From contig NC_063069.1 in NCBI RefSeq assembly GCF_022605165.1, positions 4,464,001 to 4,528,000 on the forward strand: 64,000 bases of DNA, read 5' to 3'. The notes below the pieces were generated by a model. That model was not told the origin of the DNA, searched no databases, and saw only the letters and a program-made list of their open reading frames with translations. A program made the translations under genes and the position numbers. The stretch is from Purpureocillium takamizusanense. Lineage: Eukaryota; Ascomycota; Sordariomycetes; Hypocreales; Ophiocordycipitaceae. Of the stretch, positions 13,192 to 14,930 are shown piece by piece; the first letter of the stretch is position 1, and every line of letters begins with the position of its first letter.

Positions 13192-14930
13192 TTAGGTGAG
13201 CCCCTCACCTGGGACCTCCTCCTCGGCATACTCCTCCTCACGGTATCCGGCCTCCTCCTCGTCGTACGCGGTCGCATTCTGATACTGCTGGTACTCTGAT
13301 ACCAAGTCATTCATGTTGGACTCGGCTTCCGTAAACTCCATTTCGTCCATGCCCTCCCCCGTGTACCAGTGCAGAAATGCCTTGCGGCGAAACATGGCGG
13401 TGAACTGCTCGCCAACGCGCTTGAAAATCTCCTGGATGGCGGTCGAATTGCCGATAAAGGTGGATGACATTTTCAGACCTTGTGGTGGGACGGAGCATGA
13501 CGACGTTTGTATGTTATTGGGGATCCATTCGACGAAATAAGCCGAGTTCTTTCGCTGCAAGTTGCGCATCTGGTCCTCCACCTCCTTCATGGACACTTTG
13601 CCACGGAAGATAGCGGAGCAGGTCAGGTACCGGCCGTTACGGAAGTCGGAGCCGGCCATCATGTTCTTGGGGTCGAACAACTGCTGGGTCAAATCGGGTA
13701 CGGTAACAGGGCGGAAAGAGTGCGCGCCACGACTGGTTAGTGGTGCGAAGCCAACCATGAAGAAGTGTAGACGCGGAAAGGGAACCTGGACAGAATGGGA
13801 GAGCATTGTTAGCATCACCTAATGACGGTCGCGCAGCCCGGCACGGCAGGGTCGGGCTTACCATGTTAACGGCCATCTTTCGCAAATCTGAGTTCAGCTG
13901 GCCGGGAAAGCGCAATGAAGTTGAGATACCGGACATGACGGCGGATACAAGATGGTTGAGATCGCCGTACGAAGGGTTCGATATTTTCAATGTACGCATG
14001 CAAATATCTAGCAGTGCCTCATTGTCGATGCAAAAAGTTGCGTCCGAGTTCTCAACCAACTGATGCACGGACAAGGTCGCGTTATATGGCTCCACCACGG
14101 TGTCTGACACTTTCGGCGACGGCACGACGCTAAAAGTAGCCATCATCCTATCCGGGAACTCTGTTCCTGCCGTGGTAAGTATGTAGCACCACGAGAGATC
14201 GAGGCAACTCTTACCTTCGCGAATCTTAGAAATCAGCAGCGTACCCATGCCGGAGCCAGTACCGCCGCCGAGCGAGTGAGCGATTTGAAAGCCCTGCAGG
14301 CAGTCGCAGCCCTCGGCCTCGCGACGGACTACGTCGAGCACCTGGTCGACCAATTCAGCGCCTTCAGTGTAGTGGCCCTTGGCCCAGTTGTTGCCGGCGC
14401 TTGACTGTCCAAAGACAAAATTGTCTGGGCGAAACAGTTGACCGAATGGGCCGGCGCGAACCGCATCCATCGTACCAGGCTCTAGGTCCACGAGCACAGC
14501 GCGTGGGACATATTTGTTGCTCGACGCCTATGTACGCTCTGTTAGGACCGGAATTGATGCGAGCAAGCCCTGTAGTACTACGCACCTCAGTGAAGTAGAC
14601 GCTCATCCGATCGAGTTGCAGGTCGGAGTCTCCATGGTATCTAGATGAACGTGAGATCAAAGGGACATTCCGTGCTGCCACCGGGCAGTGTGCTTACATG
14701 CCATTACTATCTAGGCCGTGCTCGCCGGCAATAGTCTGCCAGAAGGCAGAACCTATTTGGTTGCCCTGTGAAATCATTATTCAGGATCGGCGAACCGTTG
14801 GACACGAATCAAATCCTTACGCACTGGCCGGCCTGGAGGTGCACCTAGACGCAAATAGGGGCCGCAAAGTCAGCCGTATGAGCTCCATTGTGCGTCAAGT
14901 CGGGCCTAGGCTGCATACAATTTCACGCAT
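13192..14930 (-). CDS. Beta-tubulin paralogue with Ala at position 198
   Basis: Seven exons: 14930-14919, 14844-14821, 14765-14698, 14640-14586, 14527-14215, 14160-13862, 13785-13192. All junctions are GT..AG, phases are consistent, and there are 454 codons. Exon 1 encodes only MREI, the classic fungal beta-tubulin arrangement. The GTP-binding loop GGGTGSGMGT is intact, as are H6, F167, N100 and F200. Numbering matches the canonical protein through residue 200. Position 198 is Ala (ENSDATFCIDNEAL) instead of Glu, and 208 is Leu instead of Tyr. E198A is a well-known benzimidazole-resistance change. The acidic tail is long (DEEEAGYREEEYAEEEVPG). The gene is open and well spliced among many decayed neighbours, so probably functional. 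It builds the alpha/beta heterodimer of microtubules. Whether it is the only beta-tubulin cannot be seen here; the divergent residues suggest a second copy. Confidence 0.93.

What the first reader, a model, noticed from the sequence alone, without database searches (positions are those of the whole stretch)
14034..14048. Intact beta-tubulin paralogue with natural E198A
The codon for residue 198 (ENSDATF, numbering checked by exon counting) gives Ala. Established knowledge: E198A/K/G in fungal beta-tubulin causes high-level benzimidazole resistance. All seven exons are intact, so this may be an expressed drug-insensitive or self-protection copy. Rhizoxin-site Asn100 is unchanged, so any protection would be at the colchicine/benzimidazole region.
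Basis: partly seen in the sequence, partly recalled or inferred. Interest (0 to 1): 0.85.

Follow-up and report, generated by a model that had tools for sequence, protein, structure and literature searches.

The report
Third fungal beta-tubulin lacking Glu198
This insect-killing mould carries an intact third beta-tubulin gene, in two copies, that naturally has the amino acid which makes other fungi resistant to benzimidazole fungicides, and related genes in several genera share the loss of the usual residue, so it looks old and maintained rather than a recent resistance mutation.

Summary
Confirmed: in Purpureocillium takamizusanense, minus strand 14930-13192 encodes an intact 454-aa beta-tubulin in seven exons, and codon 198 (14041-14039, GCA) is Ala. 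The genome also holds a near-identical intact copy on C1 (Ala198; 8 of 1362 coding bases differ) and two ordinary beta-tubulins with Glu198. The gene is thus an extra isotype, not a mutated main tubulin. In a 64-row tree built without columns 198 and 253 it lies in a 26-row clade (Purpureocillium, Metarhizium, Fusarium, Ilyonectria, Thelonectria) where 26 of 26 rows lack Glu198; third copies of Clonostachys and Tolypocladium lack it too. Exons of the two copies differ much less than flanks. Best reading: an old, maintained accessory beta-tubulin, expected to be benzimidazole-insensitive, a candidate for the carbendazim/benomyl tolerance reported in P. lilacinum. Expression, weak drug binding and the link to tolerance are inferred; two reports of sensitivity in the genus speak against constitutive protection. 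Self-protection by a neighbouring toxin cluster is not supported: no ketosynthase, NRPS condensation or UstYa match was found near either copy.

The parts
13192..14930 (-). Third beta-tubulin gene, seven exons, 454 aa, stop codon included
   Evidence: Spliced reading without stops, GT...AG introns; tubulin domain match; solved beta-tubulins as best sequence matches to its largest frame
14039..14041 (-). Codon 198, GCA, Ala in place of Glu
   Evidence: numbering by gapless alignment to the C3 paralogue
14161..14214 (-). Intron 5, 54 bases, in codon 158; without a stop if retained; absent from the two canonical paralogues
   Evidence: the public model of the C1 copy (P0092) reads through it
12647..22687 (.). 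Extent of the segment duplicated at C1 4543666-4557183, in blocks of 87.6-98.1% identity with insertions in both
16596..17531 (+). DUF3632 frame upstream of the tubulin gene, divergent to it, within the duplicated segment
   Evidence: Pfam PF12311, E 1.5e-16; duplicated block
22507..22905 (+). Frame with the start of a sodium/calcium exchanger domain; the duplication ends inside it at 22687
   Evidence: Pfam PF01699, E 3.7e-18; block end

Best explanation
This is a third, accessory beta-tubulin isotype of hypocrealean fungi, present in two near-identical copies in this genome beside two ordinary beta-tubulins. In this isotype Glu198 was lost early, probably before the genera of the clade diverged, and the site has held Ala, Val, Cys or Ser since; other residues near the colchicine/benzimidazole region changed too (Ser237, Ser239, Met253, often Ser or Thr352). 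The protein should fold, bind GTP and co-assemble like any beta-tubulin, but dimers that contain it should bind carbendazim or benomyl poorly, so that microtubules rich in it keep assembling under such drugs. Shown: intact reading frame, Ala198, two Glu198 paralogues, clade-wide lack of Glu198, constraint on the coding sequence. Inferred: expression, weak drug binding, and a contribution to the tolerance reported for P. lilacinum. The natural use is tolerance of natural antimitotics, a stage-specific microtubule role, or both; the data do not choose.
For: Intact gene and Ala198 in both copies; Glu198 in the C3 and C12 paralogues. Tree without columns 198 and 253: 26 of 26 rows of the clade (support 96/89) and 30 of 33 rows of the wider set (92/91) lack Glu198; 4 changes of the label against 21.4 in shuffles. 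All 28 rows with Met253 lack Glu198; Ser239 in 28 of 28 and Ser237 in 27 of 28 of these. Exons differ at 8 of 1365 sites between copies against 29 of 799 in flanks, p 3e-7; 2 of 8 coding changes alter the protein, dN 0.0028, dS 0.0165. E198A is the most-reported field resistance change, 20 species, and E198V is reported in two (PMC5108816, passages). P. lilacinum QLP12 was re-isolated on PDA with 100 ug/ml of a 50% carbendazim powder on the ground of its tolerance (PMC5337802, passages); P. lilacinum and P. lavendulum are isolated on a medium with benomyl (PMC7822405, passages).
Against: No expression or drug-binding data were reached. P. lavendulum transformants were selected at 10 ug/ml benomyl with a resistance marker, so that strain is sensitive (PMC8534313, passages); carbendazim-resistant P. 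lilacinus with fourfold Tub2 expression over wild type Pl36-1 is cited (PMC6367828, passages), so wild type is not fully protected. Three rows of the wider set keep Glu198. Enrichment of changes at 11 positions named in papers is not significant, 2 of 11, p 0.23. Introns are also conserved between the copies, 4 of 374, so gene conversion may explain part of the exon identity.
Confidence: 0.55

Rival explanations
1. A stage-specific isotype, like tubC of Aspergillus nidulans in conidiation, in which Glu198 and its neighbours changed to tune microtubule behaviour; drug insensitivity would be a by-product without ecological role.
For: Fungal second beta-tubulins have stage-linked, partly redundant roles (PMC9294176, passages). 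The residue varies among Ala, Val, Cys and Ser rather than being fixed. Reports of drug-sensitive strains in the genus fit an isotype not used in vegetative growth.
Against: Lack of Glu198 is kept in 26 of 26 rows of a clade that spans several genera, which is more than drift at a free site would suggest; tolerance is reported for P. lilacinum.
Confidence: 0.33
2. Self-protection: the copy guards the fungus against its own antimitotic metabolite.
For: The colchicine-side residues differ from the canonical paralogues; the genome is reported to have 36 biosynthetic clusters (PMC9302088, whole text).
Against: No ketosynthase, condensation or UstYa match near either copy; the nearest on C2 ends about 0.86 Mb before the window and the nearest on C1 about 1.95 Mb before the other copy. 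Other cluster types were not searched for, and a resistance gene need not lie beside its cluster.
Confidence: 0.05
3. Recent acquired resistance from fungicide use in agriculture.
For: E198A is the classical field change (PMC5108816, passages).
Against: The strain came from a cicada fungus in Chiba (PMC9302088); both ordinary beta-tubulins keep Glu198; the whole clade lacks Glu198.
Confidence: 0.02
4. A decaying duplicate or assembly artefact.
For: Two copies, one with about 5.6 kb of retrotransposon-like sequence inserted 254 bases before its start codon.
Against: Both frames intact, exons more conserved than flanks; same residue in 5 of 5 third-type P. lilacinum records.
Confidence: 0.03

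Closest known systems
Target-site benzimidazole resistance E198A in the main fungal beta-tubulin (benA/TUB2), PMC5108816 (passages)
   Same: Same residue in the same protein family, so the same loss of drug fit is expected
   Different: Here it is the normal state of an extra isotype beside two Glu198 paralogues, not a mutation of the main tubulin under fungicide use
Natural low-affinity residues in fungal beta-tubulins: Phe240 in Fusarium graminearum beta2 (PMC13209188, passages); [quoted passage not shown]
   Same: Resistance-type residue as wild type, without mutation
   Different: Other positions, and in a main beta-tubulin, not in a third isotype with its own intron pattern
Aspergillus nidulans tubC and Fusarium graminearum TUB1/TUB2 (PMC9294176, passages)
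   Same: Extra beta-tubulin with partly redundant, stage-linked role
   Different: This genome has the two usual beta-tubulins already; whether tubC itself belongs to the same branch was not tested. Second Aspergillus copies (P0118, P0126, P0150) sit next to the clade with weak support (82/72, 82/77) and have Glu198

Membership tests
beta-tubulin | Full-length tubulin fold domains with beta-type sequence | tested here: met
   454 aa, 38 differences in the first 425 residues from the C3 beta-tubulin; tubulin domain match; best solved relatives are beta-tubulins
beta-tubulin | Assembles into microtubules | not testable with these tools
   Needs protein or cells
Third-isotype clade of Hypocreales without Glu198 | Groups with the other third copies with good support when columns 198 and 253 are left out | tested here: met
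   26-row clade, 96/89
Third-isotype clade of Hypocreales without Glu198 | Shared gene structure | tested here: inconclusive
   Introns in codons 35 and 158 and after codon 257 are absent from C3 and C12, which have one in codon 317 instead; odd residues at the codon-158 junction of two F. solani models (P0107, P0119) hint at the same intron, but no DNA of other genera was available
Benzimidazole-resistant beta-tubulin | Resistance-type residue at 198 | tested here: met
   Ala198; E198A as resistance change in 20 species
Benzimidazole-resistant beta-tubulin | Reduced drug binding or resistant growth due to this gene | not testable with these tools
   No assay data for this species were found in the papers seen
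Self-resistance gene of a biosynthetic cluster | Lies in or beside the cluster | tested here: not met
   No PF00109, PF00668 or PF11807 match in the window or near the C1 copy; other cluster types not tested

The most novel reading that the evidence does not exclude
Hypocrealean fungi carry an old spare beta-tubulin that lost the benzimidazole-sensitivity residue long before any fungicide and is kept as a back-up that lets microtubules assemble under attack by natural antimitotic compounds of plants, insects or rival microbes; this underlies the intrinsic benomyl or carbendazim tolerance reported in some of its bearers.
Probability: 0.3. Interest if true: 0.75.

Novelty: new variant of a known kind. 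Interest (0 to 1): 0.55.

Why it matters
If the isotype is expressed and insensitive, it offers a genetic cause for the benzimidazole tolerance of biocontrol fungi such as P. lilacinum, and a reason why resistance tests that read only the main tubulin can mislead. Primers or markers for E198A could also pick up this normal paralogue and report resistance where there is none. The natural series at 198 (Ala, Val, Cys, Ser, with Ser239 and Met253) makes it testable how the colchicine region can change while microtubules still work, and whether such insensitivity is older than fungicides.

Tried and rejected
Self-protection near a toxin cluster: searched the genome for ketosynthase, condensation and UstYa domains; none near either copy (the tool scores best candidates only).

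Recent fungicide selection: rejected because the clade shares the state.

Enrichment of changes in the drug pocket: not significant with 11 positions named in papers (2 of 11, p 0.23); nominally significant only with a list of 23 positions recalled from memory (6 of 23, p 0.007); not used as proof.

A count that I corrected: one search gave Ala or Cys at 198 for P0017, P0048 and P0077 by pairwise alignment; one search shows that this was misalignment and that their motifs have Glu. The corrected figures are used below.

Literature: ten searches listed no paper on a third fungal beta-tubulin isotype without Glu198. The tubulin-superfamily paper that I recall (10.1038/srep06746) and the semi-selective medium paper (PMC2618631) are not held, so an earlier description cannot be excluded.

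Rfam scan of the window: no match at the gathering threshold. No structure was predicted: the fold is known, and the spliced protein is not a letter-for-letter reading of the window.

Limits: each homologue list shows the best 120 of thousands, ranked by likeness to an Ala198 query or to an alignment made mostly of such rows, so counts are not frequencies in fungi. Only 30 of the 122 frames were scanned with Pfam (14 of 30 matched). For the tree I used 60 of 151 fetched proteins plus four from this genome, leaving out most fused, partial, near-duplicate and non-fungal rows. P. lavendulum appears in none of the lists, which does not show that it lacks the gene. No DNA of other fungi was available.

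Full report
What is there. The window lies at C2:4464001-4528000 of an assembly of 35,574,015 bases in 14 contigs. On the minus strand, seven exons from 14930 to 13195 plus the stop codon encode 454 residues without interruption. Codon 198 is GCA (Ala) at 14041-14039. Tyr50, Asn100, Gln134, Ala165, Phe167, Phe200 and Leu240 are as in the canonical paralogues.

The tubulins of this genome. A tubulin-domain search gave 12 matches. Four loci are beta-tubulin: C2 (window), C1, C3 and C12; the loci on C5, C1:4154 kb and C2:1624 kb are only about 27-42% identical to it. C3 (L012) and C12 (L011) encode ordinary 447-aa beta-tubulins with Glu198 in five exons with the same intron positions. All share introns after codons 4, 12 and 53; the window gene has further introns in codons 35 and 158 and after codon 257, and lacks the one that C3 and C12 have in codon 317. 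The C1 copy (4544216-4545951) is intact, also Ala198, and differs at 8 of 1362 coding bases and 2 residues, 277 and 283. A DNA search found no further copy of like identity (best candidates only).

Duplication. Window 12647-22687 matches C1 4543666-4557183 in blocks of 87.6-98.1% identity. The C1 copy is interrupted 254 bases before its start codon by about 5.6 kb that begins with a 471-aa frame with zinc-knuckle-like cysteines, retrotransposon-like to my eye (no domain search was run on it). The duplication ends inside a frame with a sodium/calcium exchanger domain that continues in the window, which suggests, without proof, that the window is the original place. Between the copies exons differ at 8 of 1365 sites, introns at 4 of 374, and flanks at 29 of 799 (3' flank 8 of 545, 5' flank 21 of 254); exons against flanks p 3e-7. 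Of the 8 coding changes 2 alter the protein: dN 0.0028, dS 0.0165, binomial p 0.005-0.008 with an assumed 72-74% of sites nonsynonymous. This points to purifying selection; gene conversion may add to it, since the introns are conserved too.

Relatives. Three searches gave 151 distinct proteins. Of these, 39 third-type rows lack Glu198: 33 Ala, 3 Val, 2 Cys, 1 Ser (several are alternative or partial models of one gene, one is P0092 from this genome, and one, P0132, is an unnamed metagenome row). Of the other 112, three have another residue in the aligned motif: P0116 (Anopheles, Asp), P0131 (unnamed, Gln) and P0141 (Culex, Ala); P0131, P0141 and also P0076 (Daphnia, Ser in one motif) are odd models with a second motif that has Glu. 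In a tree of 64 rows, built without columns 198 and 253, the window gene lies with P. lilacinum (8 rows, 100/99), in a 26-row clade (96/89) of Purpureocillium, Metarhizium guizhouense, Fusarium, Ilyonectria and Thelonectria where 26 of 26 lack Glu198, and in a wider set of 33 rows (92/91) where 30 lack it, including Clonostachys, Tolypocladium, Apiospora and Grosmannia; Nemania, Mariannaea and one unnamed metagenome row keep Glu. The label needs 4 changes, at least 2 by well-supported branches, against a mean of 21.4 in shuffles, none of 500 as low. All 28 rows with Met253 lack Glu198; the two others that lack it, Apiospora and Grosmannia, have Leu253. Compared with 21 canonical rows the third type has Ser237 (27 of 28), Ser239 (28 of 28) and Met253 by definition, and differs by majority at 35 of 425 positions. 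Pocket enrichment is only suggestive: 2 of 11 positions named in papers, p 0.23; 6 of 23 in a list that I recalled, p 0.007.

What it probably does. E198A is the most-reported field resistance change (20 species) and E198V is reported in two (PMC5108816, passages). P. lilacinum QLP12 was re-isolated on PDA with 100 ug/ml of a 50% carbendazim powder on the ground of its fungicide tolerance (PMC5337802, passages), and P. lilacinum and P. lavendulum are isolated on a medium with benomyl (PMC7822405, passages). Against a simple resistance role, P. lavendulum transformants were selected at 10 ug/ml benomyl (PMC8534313, passages), and carbendazim-resistant P. lilacinus with Tub2 expression fourfold over wild type is cited (PMC6367828, passages). 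I saw no sensitivity data for P. takamizusanense itself. I conclude that the protein is probably insensitive, that it is a candidate for tolerance in some strains, and that its effect may be limited by stage or amount of expression. Codon usage (GC3 0.685, between C12 0.602 and C3 0.832) gives no sign of very high expression. The only hint of transcription is the label 'variant 2' on the public model of the C1 copy, which I believe, from recall, comes from RNA-supported gene prediction; that model reads through intron 5.

Self-protection. On C2 the nearest ketosynthase, condensation and UstYa matches end at 3608284, 3572389 and 2379826, far before the window start at 4464001; on C1 the nearest to 4544216 ends at 2589895. 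Of 30 frames of the window scanned with Pfam, 14 matched: DUF6601, DUF3632, sodium/calcium exchanger, EXPERA, ATP synthase alpha/beta (V-ATPase A by my reading), fatty acid desaturase, Piwi, SOG2, a reverse transcriptase, DUF3435 (two frames), DUF6606, LYR-like and GATA-AreA-like. None is a typical cluster core.

Verdict. The locus is one member of what looks like an old third-isotype clade without Glu198. Drug insensitivity and biological role remain to be shown.

Noticed in passing
50935-56459 (-): Long retrotransposon frames: 1260 aa with endonuclease, reverse transcriptase and RNase H domains, preceded by a 602-aa frame without a Pfam match; a non-LTR element by my reading.
   Followed up: no
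57388-60277 (-): Broken pieces with weak DUF3435 matches (E 3.8e-6 and 1.7e-4, the second below the curated cut-off). DUF3435 is the family of Starship captain recombinases (recalled); here only fragments.
   Followed up: no
18732-19036: A 305-base repeat with at least 21 matches in the genome, 3 of them full length at 89-100% identity, this one included; absent at this place from the C1 copy of the duplicated segment.
   Followed up: partly
protein P0145 (Penicillium chermesinum record): A Penicillium beta-tubulin model with Gly165 and Leu167 but Glu198; another natural change at a benzimidazole position in what may be an extra copy.
   Followed up: no
protein P0053 (Grosmannia clavigera record): Two resistance-type residues together, Tyr167 and Val198.
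   Followed up: no
protein P0111 (Mariannaea record): A hypocrealean row that groups with Nemania and Apiospora (97/90) and keeps Glu198; gene transfer or mislabelled record not tested.
   Followed up: no
proteins P0025, P0034, P0044, P0083, P0130: Public P. lilacinum models of this gene differ at the first exons and around intron 5, which looks like gene-prediction error rather than biology.
   Followed up: partly
43285-44295 (-): Piwi domain frame of an Argonaute-like gene, covering 168 of 302 profile positions; intron or break not resolved.
   Followed up: no
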